Of a DNA stretch of 64,000 nucleotides, positions 2,974 through 46,692 are shown piece after piece (within the stretch, counting starts at the first letter, position 1; the number at the start of each line of letters is the position of its first letter). Position numbers and translations under genes: made by a program. The notes beneath the pieces are model-generated. The model did no database searches and had not been told where the DNA came from. It worked only from the letters and a program-made list of their open reading frames with translations. The DNA comes from Thermoleophilia bacterium (lineage in GTDB: Bacteria > Actinomycetota > Thermoleophilia > Solirubrobacterales > 70-9), in the NCBI GenBank assembly GCA_016650125.1, contig JAENWT010000015.1, positions 1 through 64,000 on the forward strand. Reading direction: 5' to 3'.

Positions 2974-3894
2974 ATGCGCGTCGCGGCGGTTCAGCTCGAG
3001 GTTGTACTCGGTGACGTCAGTCAGAATCTGGCTGAATCCGAGCGATTGGTCCGTGCCGCCGCGGCCGGTGGCGCCGAGCTGGTTGCCCTGCCCGAGTTCT
3101 TCACGACCGGAGTTGTGTTCTTGCCGGAGATAGCCGACGGAGCCCTGCCACCGGATGGGCGAGCCACCGCGATGCTAACCCGGGTCGCCGCCGACGAGGG
3201 CATCTGGGTCGGCGGCTCCTTCCTCTGTAGCGACCTCGATGGTGAATGCAGGAACGCCTGGCTGTTGGCCGGTCCGGATGGGCGGATCCACGGCCGCCAT
3301 GACAAGGACCTGCCGACCATGTGGGAGAACGCCTTTTACATCGGCGGCGATGACGACGGAGTGATCGAGGCCGACGGTTTCACGGTCGGCGCGTCAGTCT
3401 GCTGGGAATTCATGCGAACGGCGACGGCTCGTCGGCTGGTCGGTCGGGTCGATCTGGTGGTCGGCGGCTCGAACTGGTGGAGCATCCCCGGCTGGCCGCC
3501 GAGGGCGGTAAGCGACCGTATGGAAGCGAGCAACGCCCGCACCGCGCATTTGGCACCAAGTTCGTTCGGCCGCTTCGTCGGCGCACCGGTCGTCCACGGG
3601 GCGATCTGTGGCGCGGCTACCTGCCCGATGCCAGGACTGCCGGTGCTCACCTACCGTGGTCACTTCGAGGGCGGTGCAGTGGTGGCTGACGCCACCGGCG
3701 AAGTCCTGGCGTACCGTGGCCGTGGTCAAGGTTCCGGCTTCGTCGTCGCCGAGGTCGAGGTCAGCCGGGTCCCGGCGGTCGCGACAATTCCGGATCGCTT
3801 CTGGCTCCACCCACGCGGGCCACTGTCGACCGCGGCCTGGCATGGCCAGCGTCTGCTGGGTCGTCGCTGGTACAGGCGTAATGTCCGAAAATAG
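2974..3894 (+). CDS. Carbon-nitrogen hydrolase (nitrilase superfamily amidase)
   Basis: A 306-aa nitrilase-fold hydrolase that would cleave a C-N bond in an amide or nitrile. The catalytic Glu-Lys-Cys triad is visible: E41 in ALPEFF, K111 in HDKDLPT and C143 in ASVCWEFMR. The start is supported by TACAGT (2962-2967) exactly 6 nt upstream of the ATG, a leaderless-type signal. The last 14 nt overlap the reductase start in another frame, so the two are probably cotranscribed. The substrate cannot be told from sequence; predicted amidase is the safe description. Confidence 0.85.
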   Translation: MRVAAVQLEVVLGDVSQNLAESERLVRAAAAGGAELVALPEFFTTGVVFLPEIADGALPPDGRATAMLTRVAADEGIWVGGSFLCSDLDGECRNAWLLAGPDGRIHGRHDKDLPTMWENAFYIGGDDDGVIEADGFTVGASVCWEFMRTATARRLVGRVDLVVGGSNWWSIPGWPPRAVSDRMEASNARTAHLAPSSFGRFVGAPVVHGAICGAATCPMPGLPVLTYRGHFEGGAVVADATGEVLAYRGRGQGSGFVVAEVEVSRVPAVATIPDRFWLHPRGPLSTAAWHGQRLLGRRWYRRNVRK

Positions 3895-4627
3895 TGCCGA
3901 CCGGTCGATCTCGATCCGCAGTGAATTCATCTGTGAGGTCACGTCGATTGAGCGGGTTACCGACTCGATCGTCGAAATCACGCTGGCGCCGCGCGACTCG
4001 GATCCACTCGACTTTCTTCCCGGTCAGTACGTCCTGCTGAATGACACCGAGTACCGCCTGACTCCGCGATCGTATTCCGTCGCAAACGCGCCGCGCCCGG
4101 ACGGGAAACTTACGCTCCTGATCACCCGGGTCGAAGGTGGCCGGCTCAGCACGTGGGCCCACGACGAGCTGAAACCTCACGATGCCGTCTCGCTCGAGGG
4201 CCCGTACGGGACATTCACCGCCGACACCGGTCGGAGCGAACCGGTGCTCTACCTCGCGGCCGGCTCCGGTCTGGCTCCGATCCGGGCGCTGCTCGATGCT
4301 CGCCTGTCGGCCGACTCGATCGCCGGACCGACGAGCTTGATCTTTTCGGCCCGGACCGAAGCCGATGTACTCGATCGGGCTCATTTCGCAATGTTGAGCG
4401 CGGCGCACCCTGAGTTTCGCTTCATCCGAACTCTTACCCGCGGGCCGGGGCCGGAGCCGCGCGGACGGGTGCCGGACCTGCTCTCTGGGCTCTGTGCAGA
4501 TCTCACGGGGCACGATGTCTTCATCGCGGGTGCTCCCGGGTTCGTCGCCGGCTGCTCCGACGCGGCCGAAGCGGCCGGTGCCGATCGTGCCCGGATCAGG
4601 ACCGAAGTCTTCTTCGTCGACCCCTAA
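3881..4627 (+). CDS. Ferredoxin-NAD(P)H reductase-like flavoprotein (248 aa)
   Basis: A two-domain FNR-type oxidoreductase. The N-terminal FAD-binding barrel carries RSYS (in LTPRSYSVANAP) and GPYGTF. The C-terminal nucleotide-binding domain carries AAGSGLAPIRALL and IAGAPGFV. There is no 2Fe-2S ferredoxin domain, so electrons must pass to a separate partner. A start far upstream at 3608 would read through the amidase gene in another frame; ATG 3881 gives the expected barrel N-terminus and overlaps the amidase end by 14 nt. The partner oxygenase or ferredoxin is not next door. Confidence 0.8.
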   Translation: MSENSADRSISIRSEFICEVTSIERVTDSIVEITLAPRDSDPLDFLPGQYVLLNDTEYRLTPRSYSVANAPRPDGKLTLLITRVEGGRLSTWAHDELKPHDAVSLEGPYGTFTADTGRSEPVLYLAAGSGLAPIRALLDARLSADSIAGPTSLIFSARTEADVLDRAHFAMLSAAHPEFRFIRTLTRGPGPEPRGRVPDLLSGLCADLTGHDVFIAGAPGFVAGCSDAAEAAGADRARIRTEVFFVDP

Positions 4628-5568: not shown

Positions 5569-7242
5569 ATGCTGACAACCCGCGCTCGACTCGTTCCGCT
5601 CGCCGTCCTGATCGTCATGTCCGGAGCTCTGGCGTTTTCGCCAGGGGCGTCGGCGAAGTCGAAGGGGTTCAAATTCGGCGTCGCCACCGGCGACGTCAGC
5701 GCCAAATCGGCAATTCTCTGGGCTCGCTCGGCCAAACAGGGCAAGGCGTTGATCCAGGTGACCGGCGCCAAGGGCGGCTTCAAGCAGTGCAAGCTCAAGA
5801 AGGCGCCCGCCAAGTTCGTCGTCCAGGCGAAAAAGTCGAACGACCTGACCGTTCAGAAGCGGATCTACAAGCTCCGTCCCGGGACCAGCTACAAGTACCG
5901 CTTCTGCATGTCGAATGGCCGCCGGAGCGAGACCGGCAAGTTCAAGACGGCTCCGAAGCAGGGTCAGCAGAAGAAAATCCGCTTCGCGCTGTCGGGTGAC
6001 CAGGACGCGCGGCCGATCCCCGGCGGCACCGAGCCCTACTGGAACAAGTTCCAGGTCTGGAATCGCATCCGTGCTCAGAACAACGACTTCAACGTCCTGA
6101 TGGGCGACACGATCTACTCCGACACCGAGGTGCCTGGTTACAAGCTCAAGGACGTCGCCGTGTCGGTCAAACAGAAGCGGACCGCTTACAAGACGAATCT
6201 GGGGATGAAGCCCTGGACGAACGCCCGCGGGTCGGCTGCCTACTACGCACACTGGGACGACCACGAGTTCCTCAACGACTTCTCCCAGGCGGAGAACACC
6301 TTCCCCTACAGCAACGATGGAGTGGACCAGGGCAGCACGGACATCAGCGGCAAGAAGCTTTACAAGCAGGGCGTTCAGGCTTTCACCGACTACAACCCGA
6401 TCACCTACAAGAAGAGTTCTGGCATCTACCGCTCCGAGCGGTGGGGCAAGAACCTCGAAATCTTCTTCCTCGACGAACGCTCCTTCCGTTCGTCGAGTGC
6501 CGATTACGGCGGGGCCTGCGACAACCCGGCCGGGAGTGGTACTCCGGACCTCGCCCCGACTGCGCCGCAGAGCACCCGCAACGTCTTCGCGGCGCTGATC
6601 CCGGCGCTCGCCAACCCGGTGCCGCCGGACTGTCTCGACGCCATCAACGACCCCAGCCGGACAATGCTCGGATCGAACCAGCTGAAGACCTTCAAGAATG
6701 CGGTAAAGAACTCGAGCGCCACGTTCAAGGTGATCTTCAACGAAGTGCCGATCCAGCAGTACTACGCCCTTCCTTATGACCGCTGGGAGGGTTACGAAGC
6801 CGAGCGCAAGGCGCTGCTTCACTTCCTTCAGGACAACGTCAGGAATGTGGTCTTCCTGACCACAGACGTGCACGCGAACCTGGTGAACGACGCCCGTTAC
6901 AACACGCTCGGACCGGACGGCGTGCAGGACTCGGGGATCCTCGACGTGACCACGGGCCCGGTCGCAACGGAGAACTACACCGGTGAAATCAACGGCGCGA
7001 CCGGCAACCCGTCATCCGGTCCGCTGATCCAGAGCGTGTTCCTGAAGTCACCGCCGCCGCTCGGCGTCGGCATGCAGTGCGCTTCGACCGACCAGTTCAG
7101 CTACGCCGAGGTCGAAGTGACCAGGGCACAGCTCAAGATCGACCTGCTCGACGACAAGGATCAGCCGGTCCTCGACACCGGCGACGTCGAAGCGAATCCC
7201 GATGCAACTCCCTGCTCGCAAGTCGTCATTCCCGCAGAGTAG
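5569..7242 (+). CDS. PhoD-like secreted alkaline phosphatase/phosphodiesterase
   Basis: 557 aa from ATG 5569. An earlier TTG (5434) lies inside the palindrome and would put 45 odd residues before the signal peptide. Residues 1-29 form a signal peptide ending SPGASA. The mature protein has an N-terminal fibronectin-like domain and a PhoD-type metallophosphoesterase core: SGDQDARP, LMGDTIYSDTE, HWDDHEFLND, FFLDERSF and TTDVHANLVNDA supply the metal ligands. PhoD enzymes release phosphate from phosphodiesters outside the membrane. Export may be by Sec or Tat, since two arginines are near the start but there is no clear twin-Arg motif. Confidence 0.85.
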   Translation: MLTTRARLVPLAVLIVMSGALAFSPGASAKSKGFKFGVATGDVSAKSAILWARSAKQGKALIQVTGAKGGFKQCKLKKAPAKFVVQAKKSNDLTVQKRIYKLRPGTSYKYRFCMSNGRRSETGKFKTAPKQGQQKKIRFALSGDQDARPIPGGTEPYWNKFQVWNRIRAQNNDFNVLMGDTIYSDTEVPGYKLKDVAVSVKQKRTAYKTNLGMKPWTNARGSAAYYAHWDDHEFLNDFSQAENTFPYSNDGVDQGSTDISGKKLYKQGVQAFTDYNPITYKKSSGIYRSERWGKNLEIFFLDERSFRSSSADYGGACDNPAGSGTPDLAPTAPQSTRNVFAALIPALANPVPPDCLDAINDPSRTMLGSNQLKTFKNAVKNSSATFKVIFNEVPIQQYYALPYDRWEGYEAERKALLHFLQDNVRNVVFLTTDVHANLVNDARYNTLGPDGVQDSGILDVTTGPVATENYTGEINGATGNPSSGPLIQSVFLKSPPPLGVGMQCASTDQFSYAEVEVTRAQLKIDLLDDKDQPVLDTGDVEANPDATPCSQVVIPAE

Positions 7243-38371: not shown

Positions 38372-40326
38372 TCGCCTTCCAGCTCCGGCGTTGAAGATCC
38401 GGCACCGCTGGACGGCGTGCCGGTCGAATTGCTCGGCGTGGTGCCGGAGCTGGCGCCGGAAGAATCTGTGGTGGTACCCGCGGTTGCTGAAGTCGATGTC
38501 CGCGGGCCGTCGTTATTCGGGGTCGGCGGCGTGACCGGGGTGATCGGGCGCGGGGTGCTCTGCGGCTGGTTCCCGGTGCCGCCCGCCCCCTGCTCTTCCT
38601 GAGTCCGCGGTTTGGTCGGCGCGACCTCGATCAGGACGTAACGGTCGGTCTTGAAGATCGGGGTCAGTCCGGCTTCGCCACCGGCGACGGCCTGCGGGAA
38701 GGTCTGGCGGAGCTGATCGCCGGCGCGACTGATCGAGACCAGCATGTAGCCGACCTTGCCGAAGGGACTGTCGCGGGTGGCTTCCCAGCCACCCTCGTCC
38801 TTGTCGGCGCGGTCGAAGAAGATGTACGGCCGGCCGCTGGTGATCATCGGGCCGTAACTGAAGTTCTCGTCGACGAGAACTGAATCGTCGACCTGTGGCA
38901 GCTGGGTGTTGATGTATTCGGCCATGCTGATTTCCGGATCGATGCCGACCTGGTAACCACCGACCGATTCAGTGCCCTCCTGGGAGTCCTGGTCGTCGAC
39001 CCAGCGGGTGAACGCCTGGGCCTGGTCCTGGTACTCGTAGTTCTTCATCGCGTCCCAGCTGAGCGGAATCGCCGCAACCAGGCCGATGACCATGATAATT
39101 CCGACACCTATCCGCCAACTCGGTTCGGCCGCGTAGACCCAGGCGGCACCGGCCAGTGCGAGTAGCGCCAGCGGCAGGCCGGCGGAAAGGGTCATCAGGT
39201 CGGCTTGATCAGCCACCAGGACACGCGTCATCGGCACCGCGAGCGAAAAGACGATCAGGAAGAACAGGCCCCATGACAATCCGTCGCGCACCAATATCCC
39301 TGAAAGAACCAGAAGGATCACGGCCGCGAAGCCGAGCGGAGCGACGCCAAGCACGACGCTGAAGAGGTCGCCGAGCGCGTCCATCGGGCTCGAGGTCACA
39401 GCCTGGAGGGCTCCGGTCGTGTTGACCTGGATCATGCCCGTCTGCGCGGTGACCCACCCGAAAGGACTGCTCAGGACGATCGCGTTGAGCAGGATCCAGA
39501 CCAGGAGGGCATAGATGATCGGGGTGAGGAAGAGGATCAGCGAGGACCGGCGGCGATCCTCGCGGTCGTTGTGGCCACTTCCGATCGACATGACCGCGAT
39601 CGCAAGGCCGACCGCCCAGAGGGCGTAGCCGTAATCGATCATGATCGCCGCGCCGATCGCCAGGCCGGCAGCCACGAGGTGGCGGGTTTCGTCGGTCAGC
39701 TGCCAGGAGATGACCGCCAGAAGGGCGATCGCGGCGAACACCATGCCGAGCACGGTGATCTCGCCGTTGGCGGCGTAAAAGACGAACATCGGGTTGAGCC
39801 CGAAGAGCAGCAGCATGATGATCCGGAAGACCCCGGGGACCTCACAGCGGCGAAGGATCGAGTTGATTATCGCCATCAGGAAGCCGGCTGCCAGCGCGGT
39901 CAGCACGGGGATCGCGGTCAGCGAGGTCGCAAAGGGTTTGATGATCGCCAGCGGCACGTAGGCCACGGCTCCGAGCGGCGGGGCCGCGAGGGTCAGGGCC
40001 GCCAGCTTGGGCGGGGAGTTCCACCAGGTCATGTACGCCTCGTTGAGGCGGTGGAGCGAATCGAAGTTGACGATGCGGCCGTCGGTCAGCATGAAGTAGC
40101 CGATGAGGCCGTAGACCACAGCGAAGAAGATCGCGACGATCCAGCCCTCTGCGCTGGCCTGCGGCGCACCGCGGCGCTCGACGGCTTCGTCGTAGATGAT
40201 GACCGGATCGTTCGGGTCCGCACCGGCGAAATCCTGGCGGACGCGGGCGAGTTCCTGAGCCCGCTGGGACTCGTCGACATCGACCTCGGTCACACTGGTG
40301 GTGCGAACGGTGCGCTCAGTGGCCAT
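38368..40326 (-). CDS. GT-C-like polytopic membrane protein (652 aa)
   Basis: A cytoplasmic N-terminus of about 70 residues, about eleven helices, and a large extracytoplasmic C-terminal domain with a Pro/Thr/Ser tail. The first outer loop (VNFDSLHRLNEAYMTWWN) carries an Asp at the position used by lipid-linked GT-C transferases (PMT/ArnT style), which use polyprenyl-phosphate sugars. The ATG at 40326 overlaps the upstream stop by 1 nt (TGATG); a longer frame is a shadow of the GT2 gene. The GT-C assignment is from topology and the loop, not from a full motif. Confidence 0.65.
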   Translation of the reverse strand: MATERTVRTTSVTEVDVDESQRAQELARVRQDFAGADPNDPVIIYDEAVERRGAPQASAEGWIVAIFFAVVYGLIGYFMLTDGRIVNFDSLHRLNEAYMTWWNSPPKLAALTLAAPPLGAVAYVPLAIIKPFATSLTAIPVLTALAAGFLMAIINSILRRCEVPGVFRIIMLLLFGLNPMFVFYAANGEITVLGMVFAAIALLAVISWQLTDETRHLVAAGLAIGAAIMIDYGYALWAVGLAIAVMSIGSGHNDREDRRRSSLILFLTPIIYALLVWILLNAIVLSSPFGWVTAQTGMIQVNTTGALQAVTSSPMDALGDLFSVVLGVAPLGFAAVILLVLSGILVRDGLSWGLFFLIVFSLAVPMTRVLVADQADLMTLSAGLPLALLALAGAAWVYAAEPSWRIGVGIIMVIGLVAAIPLSWDAMKNYEYQDQAQAFTRWVDDQDSQEGTESVGGYQVGIDPEISMAEYINTQLPQVDDSVLVDENFSYGPMITSGRPYIFFDRADKDEGGWEATRDSPFGKVGYMLVSISRAGDQLRQTFPQAVAGGEAGLTPIFKTDRYVLIEVAPTKPRTQEEQGAGGTGNQPQSTPRPITPVTPPTPNNDGPRTSTSATAGTTTDSSGASSGTTPSNSTGTPSSGAGSSTPELEGE

Positions 40327-42551
40327 CAGACTTCCGCCCTGCGCGGCGTGCGGCCGGAGGAGTTCGAGCCGCTGGCGCCGACATCGATGCCGTGCTCGGT
40401 CTTCTCCCAGTAGAACGGGTTCGTGAAGAGCTGGACGAAGCCCTTCCAGGCCGCGATCGACATCAGGCCCCAGTAGAACGGCAGGAACAGGGCGTAGGGC
40501 GCGAGCGAATGATCGCCGCGCCGGACCGAAGCCGCGAGGCCGAGGTACATGAAGACGAAGTTGCCCAGGAAGAGCTGTGCAGCCGCCAGGTAATAGACCC
40601 AGCCAGGGAACAGCTCCTGGATGAACCCGGTCTGGGTGAGCGCGAACAGAGTCGTCAGGAACCAGAAGATCGGGTTGATCAGGAAGATGAAGGTGCCGCC
40701 GATCAGGAGCTGGAACGACACGAAGCCCTTGAAGCCGAGATTGCTCATCAGGCGGAAGGGATTGCGCATGTAGACGAGCCATGTCTGGAGGTAACCCTTG
40801 ATCCAGCGCGAGCGCTGGCGGACCCAGCTGCCGATCTCGGTGTTCGCCTCTTCGTAAGTGGTCGAGTCCATCATCGTCGTGCGGAAGCCGGCCTGGTGCA
40901 GCCGGACGCCGAGGTCAGCGTCCTCGGTGACGTTGTAAGGGTCCCAGCCACCGACTTCGACCAGCTGGTCGAGCTTGATGTGGTTCGAGGTGCCGCCGAG
41001 CGGGATCGGGTCCTTGCGGGCGTCAAGGCCGGGCAGCACGAGGTCGAAGAGCATCGCGTACTCGATCGAGAACCAGCGGGTCAGGAAGTTGGTTTCCTGG
41101 TTGAAGAAGTTGAGCTTGGCCTGGATGCAGACGACCGTGTCGTCGATATTCTCGAACATCAGCACGGCCTTCTTCAGCTGGCTGGGATCGGGCCGGTCCT
41201 CGGCGTCGTAGATGACGACGTACTCGCCCTTGGCGCCGAGCAGACCGTAGTTGCAGGCCTTGGGCTTGGTCTGTGGCTGCGACGGCGGGACGACGATCGG
41301 CCGGAAGTGCGGCGGCAGCTCCATCGCGAGGATCGCGGCGATCGTCTCATCATCGTCTTCCTCGCAGAGCAGGCGGACGTCGAGCTTGGTCTTCGGATAG
41401 TCCAGCGAGTTGATGCCTTCGACCAGGTACGGGGTGACCGCGGCTTCGCGGTAGAGCGGGACCAGGACGGTGTAGACGGGCAGGTTCCGCTCGTCCATGG
41501 CCGCCAGGGCCTCAGGTGTCGTCTCCAGAAGGTACCGGTGCTCGAGCGCGGACAAGCCGGCAGTCAGCTTGTAGAACGAAGCCAGGGTGTAGAAGATGCT
41601 GGCCAGAGCGAAGACCACAACCAGTGTGTCCAGCGTCTTCCAGATCAGGAAGCCGATCAGGACCAGCACCAGGATGCCTAGGAATGCCTTCTGAACGCCG
41701 CTCAGGACGAGGTGGGCCGAGCTGTCCGGGAAACGGTCCCGCAGGTTCGAGCGCGCCGTCTGTGTGTACGCGGCCCCGTGGATGCGGCGGAGCAGCTCGC
41801 CGATATCGTTGCGCGGCGCCAGGAACTCCTGGATCTCAAGGTCGGAATAGTGGCCGATTTCCCGACGGGCCTCGTCGCTCAGCGCATCCGGCACCGCGAG
41901 GAAGAGGTTGCGGCTGTCGGCGGCGATCGGCACTACGTGGAGCCGGCGCGCGACCGGCTCGGGAACGATGTCCCGGGGGGCTTCGGTCGCGTCGAATTCG
42001 GAAAGGTCGATGGTCGGCAGATGGAGCGTCTCGGAAAGTACGCGGAGCAGGGCCTTCTCTTCGAGGGCGCCGCCGTGGACGAGGACCTCGCCGATGCGTC
42101 CGCCCGAACGTTCCTGCTCGGCGATGGCCAGGCCCAGCTGCTCTTCGGTGACCAGACCACGTCCGGCCAGCTGCTCGCCGAGCCGCGGCGGGATCGCCAG
42201 GCCATGGCTGACCAGGTCTCCGGCCGAGAACTTGGCACCCGATTCGGTCTCCGCAGATCCGTTGGCGGCGAAGAGCCGGTCGATCGCTTCGTCGATCTCG
42301 TCCCGGTCGGCGATCACCCAGCTGGGTTCATAGCCGGTCTCGGCAAGGATCACGTCGGCGGCGGCGAAGTTGCTGTCGGAAGTGGAGACGACGGTCAGGT
42401 AGCCATCGCCGTATTCGACCGGGATGACGTGGTACTCGCGACAGGTTTCGGCCGGAAGGAGATGGGCGACGGCCGGGGTCAGCGTGACCATGCGCTCGCT
42501 GACGCCATGCACGTCGTCGCGGACCAGCATTTTCTCTCCGGTCATCGGCAT
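40326..42551 (-). CDS. NfrB-like GT2 glycosyltransferase with c-di-GMP-binding MshEN domain
   Basis: 741 aa. Residues about 25-95 and 196-258 are GspE-N-type alpha/beta modules. Between them is an MshEN tandem motif: RLGEQL...GL...EQL...EQ at 123-146, a 5-residue linker, then RIGEVL...GAL...ALL at 152-175. This 24-5-24 layout is that of high-affinity c-di-GMP receptors. Two helices (288-330) precede the GT2 core with VLVPLYRE, YDAED (448-452), TED (542) and QRSRW (579-583), the processive signature. C-terminal helices follow. E. coli NfrB has the same parts in another order. It should polymerise a glycan when c-di-GMP is high. Confidence 0.85.
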   Translation of the reverse strand: MPMTGEKMLVRDDVHGVSERMVTLTPAVAHLLPAETCREYHVIPVEYGDGYLTVVSTSDSNFAAADVILAETGYEPSWVIADRDEIDEAIDRLFAANGSAETESGAKFSAGDLVSHGLAIPPRLGEQLAGRGLVTEEQLGLAIAEQERSGGRIGEVLVHGGALEEKALLRVLSETLHLPTIDLSEFDATEAPRDIVPEPVARRLHVVPIAADSRNLFLAVPDALSDEARREIGHYSDLEIQEFLAPRNDIGELLRRIHGAAYTQTARSNLRDRFPDSSAHLVLSGVQKAFLGILVLVLIGFLIWKTLDTLVVVFALASIFYTLASFYKLTAGLSALEHRYLLETTPEALAAMDERNLPVYTVLVPLYREAAVTPYLVEGINSLDYPKTKLDVRLLCEEDDDETIAAILAMELPPHFRPIVVPPSQPQTKPKACNYGLLGAKGEYVVIYDAEDRPDPSQLKKAVLMFENIDDTVVCIQAKLNFFNQETNFLTRWFSIEYAMLFDLVLPGLDARKDPIPLGGTSNHIKLDQLVEVGGWDPYNVTEDADLGVRLHQAGFRTTMMDSTTYEEANTEIGSWVRQRSRWIKGYLQTWLVYMRNPFRLMSNLGFKGFVSFQLLIGGTFIFLINPIFWFLTTLFALTQTGFIQELFPGWVYYLAAAQLFLGNFVFMYLGLAASVRRGDHSLAPYALFLPFYWGLMSIAAWKGFVQLFTNPFYWEKTEHGIDVGASGSNSSGRTPRRAEV

Positions 42552-42793
42552 CAGACGGTGCCCCTGCGGCGAGCCTGGTCGCGTTCGAGCAGTTCGGCTG
42601 CCCCGACCCGCTCGACTTCGACCGTATTGTCGGGCTCACGCCGGCTGCGCCTGCGGTCGCTGATCATCATCGTGACTATGCCGGCGACGAACAGGAAGAA
42701 CGGCAGGATCAGGAACACGCTGAACATGAGCGTGAACAGGATGAGCACGCCGATGACAAAGAAAAGCGTGCCGATTGCCCCGCCGCCGTTCAC
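42551..42793 (-). CDS. Small membrane protein of the glycan operon (80 aa)
   Basis: A short N-terminus, two closely spaced hydrophobic helices (about residues 7-28 and 29-46), and a basic/acidic cytoplasmic tail (SDRRRSRREPDNTVEVERVGAAELLE). It overlaps the upstream gene by 4 nt (GTGA) and the glycosyltransferase start by 1 nt (TGATG). Small subunits of this kind accompany several polysaccharide synthases (for example PgaD), so an accessory role is likely. No family is recognised. Confidence 0.6.
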   Translation of the reverse strand: MNGGGAIGTLFFVIGVLILFTLMFSVFLILPFFLFVAGIVTMMISDRRRSRREPDNTVEVERVGAAELLERDQARRRGTV

Positions 42794-43308
42794 GAACCGT
42801 CTTGGCCGGCCACGCCGTCCCTACGCTCGCCCACTGGTTGGGCAAGCGCGATGGTGAACGATCCCTTGTCGGAATCGGTCACGTCAAAGGCAACTGGAAG
42901 TTTGCGTCGCAGCGAAGTGATCAGTGAAACACCCTCGTCGACCCGGGCGTCGATGGTCGCCGAATCGCCCCGGAGTTCACGCAGGTTGGAACTCTCGACA
43001 CCCTCGGTCTCGGCCAGGGCCTGCTCGACGGTGCGGGCCATGCTGAGGTCATGAAGCGGCTGGATGACGACCTTGATGTCGCGGTCGGTCGGCAGCTGGA
43101 AGTCGGCACTCGTGACCCTGTCGGCGCTCGGTGCGCTGGGTGGCTTCACAGGAAGGGAAGGAGTCTTGGGCGCCGAACCCTCACTCGGGGGAGCAGATGG
43201 CTTCGAACCCGAATAAAGGCGTTCCTCGAGTGCGTCGAGGCGGCTCGACATCTCGCGACGAAGTTCCCTGATCTCCCTGAGGATGTCTTGTTTTTTGCTC
43301 TTAGCCAA
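42790..43308 (-). CDS. Coiled-coil plus small alpha/beta domain protein, first gene of the glycan operon
   Basis: 172 aa. The N-terminal coiled coil (ILREIRELRREM...LDALEERLY) is followed by a Ser/Pro-rich linker and a C-terminal domain VVIQPLHDLSM, EGV, RGD, LPVAFDVTDSD. This domain aligns without gaps to the protein at 33427-33906, with PL, L, GV, GD and PVAF-VT shared. The start is TTG 43308 without a clear Shine-Dalgarno; ATG 43251 is an alternative that shortens the coil. It may be an adaptor or sensor for the synthase. Function unknown. Confidence 0.6.
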   Translation of the reverse strand: MAKSKKQDILREIRELRREMSSRLDALEERLYSGSKPSAPPSEGSAPKTPSLPVKPPSAPSADRVTSADFQLPTDRDIKVVIQPLHDLSMARTVEQALAETEGVESSNLRELRGDSATIDARVDEGVSLITSLRRKLPVAFDVTDSDKGSFTIALAQPVGERRDGVAGQDGS

Positions 43309-43356
43309 GTTTTAACGTGATGATACAAGCGTCAACGGATGGTAAAGGCTATCCTT

Positions 43357-43370
43357 CGAGTGACCACTCG
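43357..43370. promoter_or_regulatory. Inverted repeat in the glycan operon leader
   Basis: CGAGTG-AC-CACTCG is a perfect 6-bp inverted repeat about 40 bp downstream of the predicted transcription start and 50 bp before the first gene. It could be an operator or a leader hairpin. Confidence 0.35.
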
Positions 43371-43411
43371 TTGCGAAGCCACCCGACGGGCTGCCTGACT
43401 CAAGTTGCTCA

Positions 43412-43440
43412 CTATAGGTGAACAACCTGAGAATCGTCAA
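43412..43440 (-). promoter_or_regulatory. Sigma70-type promoter of the glycan operon
   Basis: On the minus strand TTGACG (43435-43440) and TATAGT (43412-43417) are separated by exactly 17 bp. The -10 lies inside an imperfect inverted repeat GTTGCTCAC...GTGAACAAC (43404-43426, 8 of 9 pairs), a candidate operator. The transcription start would be near 43405, giving a leader of about 100 nt before TTG 43308. Confidence 0.7.
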
Positions 43441-43451
43441 ACGATGAATTT

Positions 43452-43921
43452 TCAGATTTTTACGGAAATTGGTTCGTTGACGTAAAAGCCCTGCGCATAG
43501 TCCACTCCCCACTCCTTCAAGAGGTCAAATCCAGCTTGGTCGGAGACGAATTCTGCGACGGTTTTGCGACCCGCGACCTTCGCTGCATTGACGATCGAAT
43601 GGACCACCGCCTGGTCGACTTTATTCTGGGCGAGCCGCTCGATGAAGGTTCCGTCGATCTTGATCAGGTCGAGCGCTCGCCGTCCAGCAGCTCGTCGCGC
43701 CAGTTCGCCGACTCGTCGGAGATCTTCGGGATCAGGCGGTAGGCGGGCATGCCTTCGAGCTCGGCCCGGGCGTAGCCGGTCAGGATTTCGAGCGCGGGAT
43801 TGGCGAAAACGATCGAGCCACCGATGTTGTGGTCGTATTCGACGATGGCCATACCGCTTGGCGCCGCCGCAAAAACCCAGTCGAGCAGTTCGATCTGGTC
43901 AGTTGTCGCACCCCTCCACAT
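43452..43921 (-). pseudogene. Decayed PAS...EAL (c-di-GMP phosphodiesterase) gene
   Basis: Reading from ATG 43921 (TACGCT lies exactly 6 nt upstream), a PAS domain is recognisable: LLDWVFAAAPSGMAIVEYD, SIVFANPALEILTGY. The frame stops at 43664. In a different frame, 43452-43679 encodes the C-terminal third of an EAL domain: LIKIDGTFIERL, HSIVNAAKVAGRKTVAEF, then LLKEWGVDYAQGFYV. The EAL motif itself, any GGDEF domain and most of the EAL barrel are missing. An internal deletion with a frame change explains both halves. It lies directly upstream of the glycan operon, whose promoter begins 12 bp past its end. Confidence 0.75.
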
Positions 43922-43960
43922 ATTCAGAGCGTACGCCCTAATCGAAGTCGGTGACAGCGC

Positions 43961-43993
43961 AACAAAAAGCCCCGGCCGGGTGGCCGGGGCTTT
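43961..43993 (-). terminator. Rho-independent terminator of the pyrophosphatase gene
   Basis: AAAGCCCCGGCC and GGCCGGGGCTTT (43966-43977 and 43982-43993) form a perfect 12-bp stem with a 4-nt loop. On the minus strand the stem is followed by TTTTTGTT. It lies 50 nt past the pyrophosphatase stop. It also shows that the PAS frame cannot sensibly begin upstream at 44011. Confidence 0.9.
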
Positions 43994-44042
43994 CGTCGCA
44001 GATTCCTGCATATGCGTTTAGCTTTTCGTCCAGATACTTGTC

Positions 44043-46130
44043 CTAGAAGTGGACGATCGGGATGATCAGGATGGCGACGATATTCGCGACCTTGATCATC
44101 GGGTTGATCGCCGGTCCGGCGGTGTCCTTGTAGGGGTCACCGACCGTGTCGCCGGTGATCGAGGCGGCGTGGGCGTCCGAGCCCTTGCCTCCGTATTCAC
44201 CGTCCTCGATCAGTTTCTTGGCGTTGTCCCAGGCACCGCCGCCGGCGGTCATCGAGATCGCCGCGAACAGTCCGACGATGATCACGCCGATCAGCAGGCC
44301 GCCGAGGGCGTCCACGCTGAGGACGCCGACGACCACCGGAATGACGATCGGGATCAGCGACGGCAGAATCATTTCCTTCTGCGCCGCCGCGGTCACCAGG
44401 GCGACCGCCTGCCGGTAGTCCGGCTTCTCGGTGCCGTCCATGATTCCCGGCTTCTCCCTGAACTGGCGCCGCACTTCCTCGACGACCTGTCCGCCGGCCC
44501 GGCCGACCGATTCGATCGCGAACGACGAGAACAGGTAGACCATCATGCCGCCGATGATCAGGCCGACCAGGGCCTCGGGGCTCGACATGTTGAAGAGGTC
44601 GTCTATTCGGAAGCCGACCGGGGCCTCGGCGCGCAGCTCTTCCTTGAACGCCGCGAACAGGACCAGCGCGGCCAGGGCGGCCGAACCGATCGCATAACCC
44701 TTGGTGACGGCCTTGGTCGTGTTGCCGACCGCGTCCAGCGGGTCGGTCACGTTGCGCACCTCTTCCGGCAGCTCCGCCATCTCGGCGATGCCACCGGCGT
44801 TGTCGGTGATCGGACCGAATGCGTCGAGGGCCACGATCAGGCCGGTGAGTGAGAGCTGGGCCACGACGGCGATGCCGATGCCGTAAATCCCGGCGAGTTC
44901 ATTCGCCGCGAGGATCGCGAGCGCGAGCACCACGGCCGGGGCCGCCGTCGCCTGCATACCCTGGGCGAGGCCCTGGATTATGTTCGTGGCGTGCCCGGTC
45001 TCGGATGCCTTGGCGATGTTCTTGACCGGCCGGAACCTGGTCGAGGTGTAGTAGTCGGTGATCACGAACAGCAACGCGGTCACCGCGATTCCGATCACTG
45101 CGCAGAGCCAGAGGTCGGTGACGCTGACCACGCTGCCCGTCGCCTGCTCGAAGCCGACCCGCAGCGGTTCGGCCATGAGCCAGTCGGTGATCGGGTAGAA
45201 CGCCGCGATCGAAAGCACGCCGGAGACGATCAGTCCCCGGTAGAGCGCGCCTTCGACACGATCGGTCTTGGTCTTGACGATCAGCGCGCCGATGATCGAG
45301 GCGATGATCGCCGCGCCGCCCATGACCAGCGGGTAGATCGCGACTTCGCGGCTGAATTCAGGCGCGAAGTAGAGGACTCCGAGCAGCATCACGGCGACCG
45401 AGGTCACCGCGTAGGTCTCGAAGAGGTCCGCTGCCATGCCGGCGCAGTCGCCGACGTTGTCACCGACGTTGTCGGCAATCACGGCGGGGTTGCGCGGGTC
45501 GTCCTCGGGGATGCCGGCTTCAACCTTGCCGACCAGGTCGGCGCCGACGTCGGCGGCCTTGGTGAAGATACCGCCGCCGAGACGGGCGAAGACCGAGATC
45601 AGCGAACCACCGAAGCCGAGACCGATCAGGGCGTCCACAGCTTCCTTGTCGCTGTCGACCGCGCCGGTCGCGATCAGCAGGCCGAAGTAGCCGGCGACGC
45701 CGAGCAGGGCCAGGCCGACGACGAGCATGCCGGTGACCGAACCGCCCTTGAAGGCGACGTCGAGCGCCGGTGGCACTCCGCCACGGGCGGCTTCAGCAAC
45801 CCGGCTGTTGGCGCGAACCGACACGTTCATGCCGATGAAGCCGGTCGCTCCGGAAAGCGTGCCACCGACGATGAAGCCGAGGGCCGTCTGCCAGTTCTGG
45901 AGTATCGCGAGCAGAATGATCAGCGGAACCGCGACTACCGCGATGATCATGTACTGACGCTTCAGGTACGCCGAGGCACCTTCCTGGATCGCACCGGAAA
46001 TCTCCACCATGCGTTCGTTGCCGGCCGGCTTGGCCAGCAAACGCTGGGTGATGATGATGCCGTAAAGGACCGCTACCGCCGCGCAGAAAAGCGCAAAGAC
46101 GACGCCGTAGTCGATTAGAAAATCGGTCAA
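44043..46130 (-). CDS. hppA: Membrane H+-translocating pyrophosphatase, K+-independent type
   Basis: 695 aa with about sixteen helices. The substrate site shows [18 protein letters not shown], then [18 protein letters not shown], plus the C-terminal [10 protein letters not shown] and [17 protein letters not shown] motifs. In the [10 protein letters not shown] segment the position that decides K+ dependence is Lys, as in K+-independent enzymes (Ala in K+-dependent ones). It hydrolyses PPi and pumps H+ out of the cytoplasm. The start is TTG 46130, with GGAGGAG about 10 nt upstream. Confidence 0.95.
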
Positions 46131-46236
46131 AGTGTGTTCTCCTCCGGTGTTTTGATCCCGCTTCTAGCGGCGTCAGCCTATTACGACCGACAGATGCGAC
46201 GACGGGACCTACCCGGTGAAGGTGCCGCGGAAGGGT

Positions 46237-46692
46237 TCAGCTGCCGCGTGGAGTCCACAGGCCCGGGCCCTTCGGCGGACCGGGATCGGCCGTTGGCTGG
46301 GGCGGCGGAGCCTCGCCTGAGGCGGGAGATTCCGGGGTGGGTTCTTCACCCGGGGCGTTGCCACCGGCGCGCTCGGCGTAGAGCATCTGCACCTGGCTGA
46401 GCGGTTCTTTCACGGCATCGGCGACTTCGGGCGGCAGCAGCGCGATCAGGGCGCGCACGGCATCGATGCCGATCCGGGCCTGGTCGAGATCGACTTCGTC
46501 TTCCTTGACGATGCGGCGGGCACTCAGGTTGAGCACACTGGCCACAGTCTGGGTGAGCAGGTCCTCGACCCGGACCTGGCTCATCTGCTGCTCAAGCATC
46601 TCCTGCTCTTCAGGAGTGAGAGGCGGCGGACCCTGCGGGTCGGATTCGGATTCGGGTTCGGGCTCGGGGGGCGCTGTGGGCTCTTCGATCAT
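46237..46692 (-). CDS. DUF1844-like acidic protein
   Basis: 151 aa from ATG 46692; TAAGAT (46700-46705) lies 7 nt upstream. An ATG at 46701 would fall within that -10. A Pro/Glu-rich N-terminus precedes a helical core (RVEDLLTQTVASVLNLSARRI and DLDQARIGIDAVRALIALL) that fits the DUF1844 pattern, and a Pro-rich tail follows. The function of DUF1844 is unknown; it is often near translation or replication genes. The gene stands alone between the pyrophosphatase and the repeat-containing gap. Confidence 0.6.
   Translation of the reverse strand: MIEEPTAPPEPEPESESDPQGPPPLTPEEQEMLEQQMSQVRVEDLLTQTVASVLNLSARRIVKEDEVDLDQARIGIDAVRALIALLPPEVADAVKEPLSQVQMLYAERAGGNAPGEEPTPESPASGEAPPPQPTADPGPPKGPGLWTPRGS

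What the first reader, a model, noticed from the sequence alone, without database searches (positions are those of the whole stretch)
43452..43921. Decayed PAS-EAL phosphodiesterase directly upstream of the c-di-GMP-gated operon
A PAS domain and the C-terminal third of an EAL domain occur in different frames with the central part lost. It has a leaderless-type start, so it was once an active gene. Its loss would remove a local c-di-GMP-degrading activity next to a c-di-GMP-activated synthase. No other GGDEF or EAL gene is in the window.
Basis: partly seen in the sequence, partly recalled or inferred. Interest (0 to 1): 0.7.

Follow-up and report, generated by a model that had tools for sequence, protein, structure and literature searches.

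The report
Dead PAS-EAL gene beside glycan operon
The sequence holds a genuine but broken gene for a sensor enzyme that once handled the bacterial signal c-di-GMP, and in related bacteria the same slot next to a c-di-GMP-responsive sugar-polymer operon is empty or carries an enzyme that makes the signal; gene decay of this kind is ordinary, though the changing neighbour is a modestly interesting hint about local signalling.

Summary
On the minus strand an in-frame PAS domain (43921-43670) is followed, in another frame, by the C-terminal 68 of 236 positions of an EAL domain (43685-43455, ending at a stop at 43452). The rest of the EAL domain, and any GGDEF domain, is missing, so the product cannot be a phosphodiesterase. 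The two pieces abut, which points to one internal deletion. A PAS homologue sits at the same place, just after the H+-pyrophosphatase, in the closest congener held (G017, a Solirubrobacterales MAG). dN/dS between the two is about 0.18, so the PAS was under selection before the loss. No intact copy was found: the G017 contig ends inside the gene, and its copy is shifted near the start. Eight of nine congeners with the downstream operon carry a divergent membrane diguanylate cyclase in this slot instead, and one has nothing. The operon's glycosyltransferase keeps both MshEN c-di-GMP motifs, so 'c-di-GMP-gated' is reasonable by homology. Whether the lost gene degraded or made c-di-GMP (PAS-EAL or PAS-GGDEF-EAL), and whether it acted locally, is not shown. 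Verdict: a real, fairly recent pseudogene of a known kind; regulatory consequence plausible but untested.

The parts
43670..43921 (-). PAS domain remnant with the conserved ATG (MWRGATT...); the frame ends at a TGA just past the junction
   Evidence: Pfam PAS_8 E=1e-6; 58% identical homologue at the same position after PPase in G017
43455..43685 (-). C-terminal third of an EAL domain (PF00563 positions 169-236), in a different frame from the PAS
   Evidence: 66 bits, E=4e-18;
43667..43690 (-). Deletion junction: PAS homology ends and EAL homology begins within a few bases; short shared string around CGCTCGACC
   Evidence: microhomology is inference
43411..43440 (-). sigma-70-like promoter (TTGACG-18-TATAGT, 10 of 12) between the remnant and the operon; candidate operon promoter
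   Evidence: 0.5 expected by chance; consensus match only
42790..43308 (-). 172-aa protein of unknown family, first gene of the operon; homologues lie in the same place in congeners
42551..42793 (-). 80-aa small membrane protein of the operon
40326..42551 (-). MshEN plus GT2 glycosyltransferase, the putative c-di-GMP-responsive synthase
   Evidence: MshEN 92.9 bits, GT2 77.7 bits; tandem 24-residue motifs with a 5-residue spacer
44043..46130 (-). H+-translocating pyrophosphatase, the upstream anchor of the locus
   Evidence: PF03030 867 bits; 91% identical in G017

Best explanation
A PAS-sensing EAL (or GGDEF-EAL) gene was present between the H+-pyrophosphatase gene and the MshEN-glycosyltransferase operon in the common ancestor of this organism and G017. 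In the window's lineage it was destroyed fairly recently by one internal deletion that joined the PAS coding sequence to the last third of the EAL domain out of frame. The remnant makes no c-di-GMP enzyme. Shown: the remnant, the abutting junction, the homologous PAS at the same site in the nearest held congener, past purifying selection, and the intact neighbouring operon. Inferred: one deletion event, recent date, former c-di-GMP activity, and any effect on the operon (most likely removal of one input to the c-di-GMP supply seen by the MshEN-glycosyltransferase).
For: PAS and EAL matches in separate frames. PAS homologue directly after PPase in G017, 58% identical over 74 aa, with PPase placing G017 as the window's nearest kin among the six full-length PPases compared (100/99). 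NG86 dN 0.29, dS 1.64; differences by codon position 21/11/41; PAS GC3 0.83. The surviving pieces have no internal stop in their own frames. Operon neighbours conserved.
Against: No intact gene was found in 232 genomes of the order (PAS query) or in genome contigs. The G017 contig ends in the PAS and its copy is off frame near the start, so the PAS-EAL linkage rests on the window alone. The genome is a 41-contig assembly of unknown read support.
Confidence: 0.85

Rival explanations
1. Assembly artefact: the real genome has an intact gene and the missing stretch was dropped in assembly.
For: The genome is in 41 contigs and no reads are available.
Against: The two sides share only about 7-9 bases at the join, shorter than ordinary assembly k-mers, so a collapse there is unlikely (inference); the frame also changes at the join.
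Confidence: 0.08
2. The PAS and EAL pieces come from two different genes brought together, not from one PAS-EAL gene.
For: No homologue linking this PAS to this EAL was found; the EAL piece has lower GC3 (0.69 against 0.83).
Against: PAS before EAL on one strand is the commonplace order; the pieces abut without extra sequence, and the EAL keeps its natural 3' end and stop.
Confidence: 0.1
3. The remnant still makes a functional small PAS protein (85 residues from ATG 43921, or 115 from ATG 44011), for example a sensor or decoy.
For: The PAS frame is open from 44011 to the junction, and the PAS part has codon bias typical of the window's genes.
Against: The PAS looks cut short at the junction, and the only homologue in the order is the G017 piece, which is cut by its contig end. 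The inverted repeat and T run after PPase lie inside the longer frame.
Confidence: 0.06

Closest known systems
PAS-EAL and PAS-GGDEF-EAL c-di-GMP phosphodiesterases (PF00563)
   Same: PAS upstream of an EAL domain; the C-terminal EAL block is about 46-51% identical to the best class-wide relatives
   Different: Lacks EAL positions 1-168, which include the ExLxR motif and, from knowledge of the family, most metal-binding residues; frame broken; not functional
NfrB/DgcJ local c-di-GMP module of E. coli (PMC8669469)
   Same: A glycosyltransferase fused to an MshEN domain; in eight congeners a diguanylate cyclase gene lies next to the operon, as the paper reports for some Pseudomonas nfr operons
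   Different: Domain order reversed (MshEN N-terminal here); product, partner genes and local action untested; here the adjacent gene is a dead EAL gene
Loss of the phosphodiesterases PDE2 (Rtn) and PDE3 in Yersinia pestis (PMC7913351)
   Same: Loss of c-di-GMP-degrading genes in a bacterium with a c-di-GMP-controlled polysaccharide
   Different: There a phenotype favouring biofilm is reported; here none is known and the lost enzyme's activity is inferred

Membership tests
EAL phosphodiesterase (PF00563) | Complete EAL domain with the ExLxR motif and metal-binding residues | tested here: not met
   Only model positions 169-236 remain
EAL phosphodiesterase (PF00563) | Sequence homology of what remains | tested here: met
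   66 bits over 68 positions
PAS domain protein | Significant PAS match | tested here: met
   PAS_8 28.8 bits against a cut-off of 21.8; truncated
Pseudogene of a formerly selected gene | Disrupted frame plus evidence of past purifying selection | tested here: met
   (selection shown for the PAS part only)
Pseudogene of a formerly selected gene | Intact orthologue in a relative | tested here: inconclusive
   G017 homologue is cut by its contig end and off frame near its start; none elsewhere in 232 genomes
MshEN c-di-GMP receptor (downstream glycosyltransferase) | Two 24-residue motifs separated by 5 residues | tested here: met
   RLGEQL...AEQ and RIGEVL...SET; fits the relaxed motif; the last residue of motif 2 is T here, Q in most congeners shown
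MshEN c-di-GMP receptor (downstream glycosyltransferase) | Binding of c-di-GMP | not testable with these tools
   needs a binding assay

The most novel reading that the evidence does not exclude
The slot between the pyrophosphatase gene and the MshEN-glycosyltransferase operon has received c-di-GMP enzyme genes more than once in this genus: a divergent diguanylate cyclase in one clade and a PAS-EAL gene in the window/G017 lineage, the latter now dead. That would mean selection for a dedicated local c-di-GMP input to this synthase, possibly with opposite signs in different lineages.
Probability: 0.3. Interest if true: 0.45.

Novelty: new member of a known kind. Interest (0 to 1): 0.25.

Why it matters
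Taken alone it is one more pseudogenised c-di-GMP gene. With the congeners it gives a small natural series in a little-studied actinobacterial group: the same MshEN-glycosyltransferase operon with an adjacent diguanylate cyclase, with nothing, or with a dead EAL gene. That series could test whether MshEN-glycosyltransferases are served by dedicated neighbouring c-di-GMP enzymes.

Tried and rejected
Rfam scan of 42000-46500 for a c-di-GMP riboswitch or other RNA: nothing credible. Plasmid search with the PAS: no match. Genome-contig scan: only G017's own record and weak Streptomyces PAS hits at 38-45%. Diguanylate cyclase of the congener slot sought elsewhere in this genome: only the GGDEF part and adjoining residues of other proteins match, so no relocated orthologue was recognised. 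G017's two EAL genes (contigs C210 and C288) are not the missing part: 30% and 36% identical to the window's EAL piece, and C288 has different neighbours. Recoding by a programmed frameshift was set aside because a fused product would still lack EAL positions 1-168.

Full report
The observation. The minus strand of 43452-43921 was translated in all frames. One frame reads MWRGATTDQIELLDWVFAAAPSGMAIVEYDHNIGGSIVFANPALEILTGYARAELEGMPAYRLIPKISDESANWRDELLDGERST and stops. A second frame reads LDLIKIDGTFIERLAQNKVDQAVVHSIVNAAKVAGRKTVAEFVSDQAGFDLLKEWGVDYAQGFYVNEPISVKI and stops at 43452. Pfam calls the first PAS_8 (E=1e-6) and the second EAL, positions 169-236 (E=4e-18). The whole-genome scan calls the same place EAL over the same positions. 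These are far from chance. No other GGDEF or EAL match lies in the window's contig.

The junction. PAS homology to the G017 copy runs to about 43670 and EAL homology starts at about 43674, so almost nothing lies between them. A single internal deletion is the simplest reading; the short shared string around CGCTCGACC would fit a microhomology-mediated join, but that is inference. EAL positions 1-168 are missing. Whether a GGDEF domain was lost too cannot be said: among the nearest EAL relatives in the class most have a GGDEF motif upstream, a few show none, and the own genome's closest EAL (C10, about 47% identical) shows PAS text and no GGDEF motif in the same gene.

Was it once a working gene? 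In G017, a Solirubrobacterales MAG, a PAS 58% identical lies directly after the pyrophosphatase gene, and the ATGTGG start is shared. Between the two PAS sequences dN is 0.29 and dS 1.64 (NG86), with differences of 21, 11 and 41 at codon positions 1, 2 and 3, and the window PAS keeps GC3 of 0.83. That is past purifying selection and fairly recent decay. dS is near saturation, so the ratio is rough. The G017 contig ends inside the PAS, and its copy is off frame near the start, so it cannot serve as an intact reference. In 232 genomes of the order no further homologue of this PAS was found at E<=1e-5.

The locus in relatives. The downstream genes (172-aa protein, 80-aa membrane protein, MshEN-GT2 glycosyltransferase, further large membrane protein) are found together in nine congeners, except that the 80-aa gene was not matched in G002. 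In eight of them (G001, G002, G009, G010, G011, G012, G014, G015) a membrane diguanylate cyclase on the opposite strand fills the slot upstream of the operon; these eight form one clade in the glycosyltransferase tree (95/98), apart from the window and G003. G003 has only about 310 bases between the pyrophosphatase and the operon. In G008 and G005, where no close homologue of the glycosyltransferase was found, the pyrophosphatase is followed by a gene whose product looks, by eye, like the 172-aa protein. So the cyclase and the PAS-EAL gene look like separate arrivals in one slot, though loss from an ancestor with either cannot be excluded.

The operon. The glycosyltransferase has MshEN (92.9 bits) and GT2 (77.7 bits) domains. 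Its MshEN part carries RLGEQLAGRGLVTEEQLGLAIAEQ, five residues, then RIGEVLVHGGALEEKALLRVLSET, which fits the published relaxed motif; the last residue of the second motif is T where most congeners shown have Q. This supports c-di-GMP binding by homology with MshEN (PMC5013675) and with NfrB (PMC8669469), where a specific diguanylate cyclase activates the enzyme locally. A sigma-70-like promoter lies between the remnant and the operon (43440-43411), so the operon need not depend on the dead gene's promoter.

Verdict. The claim that its loss removed a local c-di-GMP-degrading activity is plausible and untested; the sign of the lost activity is not known. Interest is low to moderate, mainly for the changing occupant of the slot.

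Noticed in passing
L044 about 5600-5700 (G000:C10 about 113600-113700): The genome's closest other EAL gene, a PAS-PAS-EAL gene, changes reading frame within the first part of its EAL domain. If real, two of the three EAL genes in this genome are broken; it could also be a sequencing or assembly error.
   Followed up: partly
G000:C10:67420-67584: A match to only the first 57 of 161 positions of GGDEF in a 214-aa frame; possibly another truncated diguanylate cyclase.
   Followed up: no
window 40326-42551: Second MshEN motif of the glycosyltransferase ends in T where most congeners shown have Q, a position reported to matter for c-di-GMP binding.
   Followed up: partly
L088 about 3846-4532 (G017:C288): G017 has an EAL stretch matching positions 82-236 with one stop codon inside, near Lon protease and cytochrome P450 genes (named by eye from the translations); possibly another decayed EAL gene in the genus.
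   Followed up: partly
L041 12435-13988 and L037 8625-9740: Divergent membrane diguanylate cyclase directly upstream of the MshEN-glycosyltransferase operon in eight of nine congeners.
   Followed up: yes
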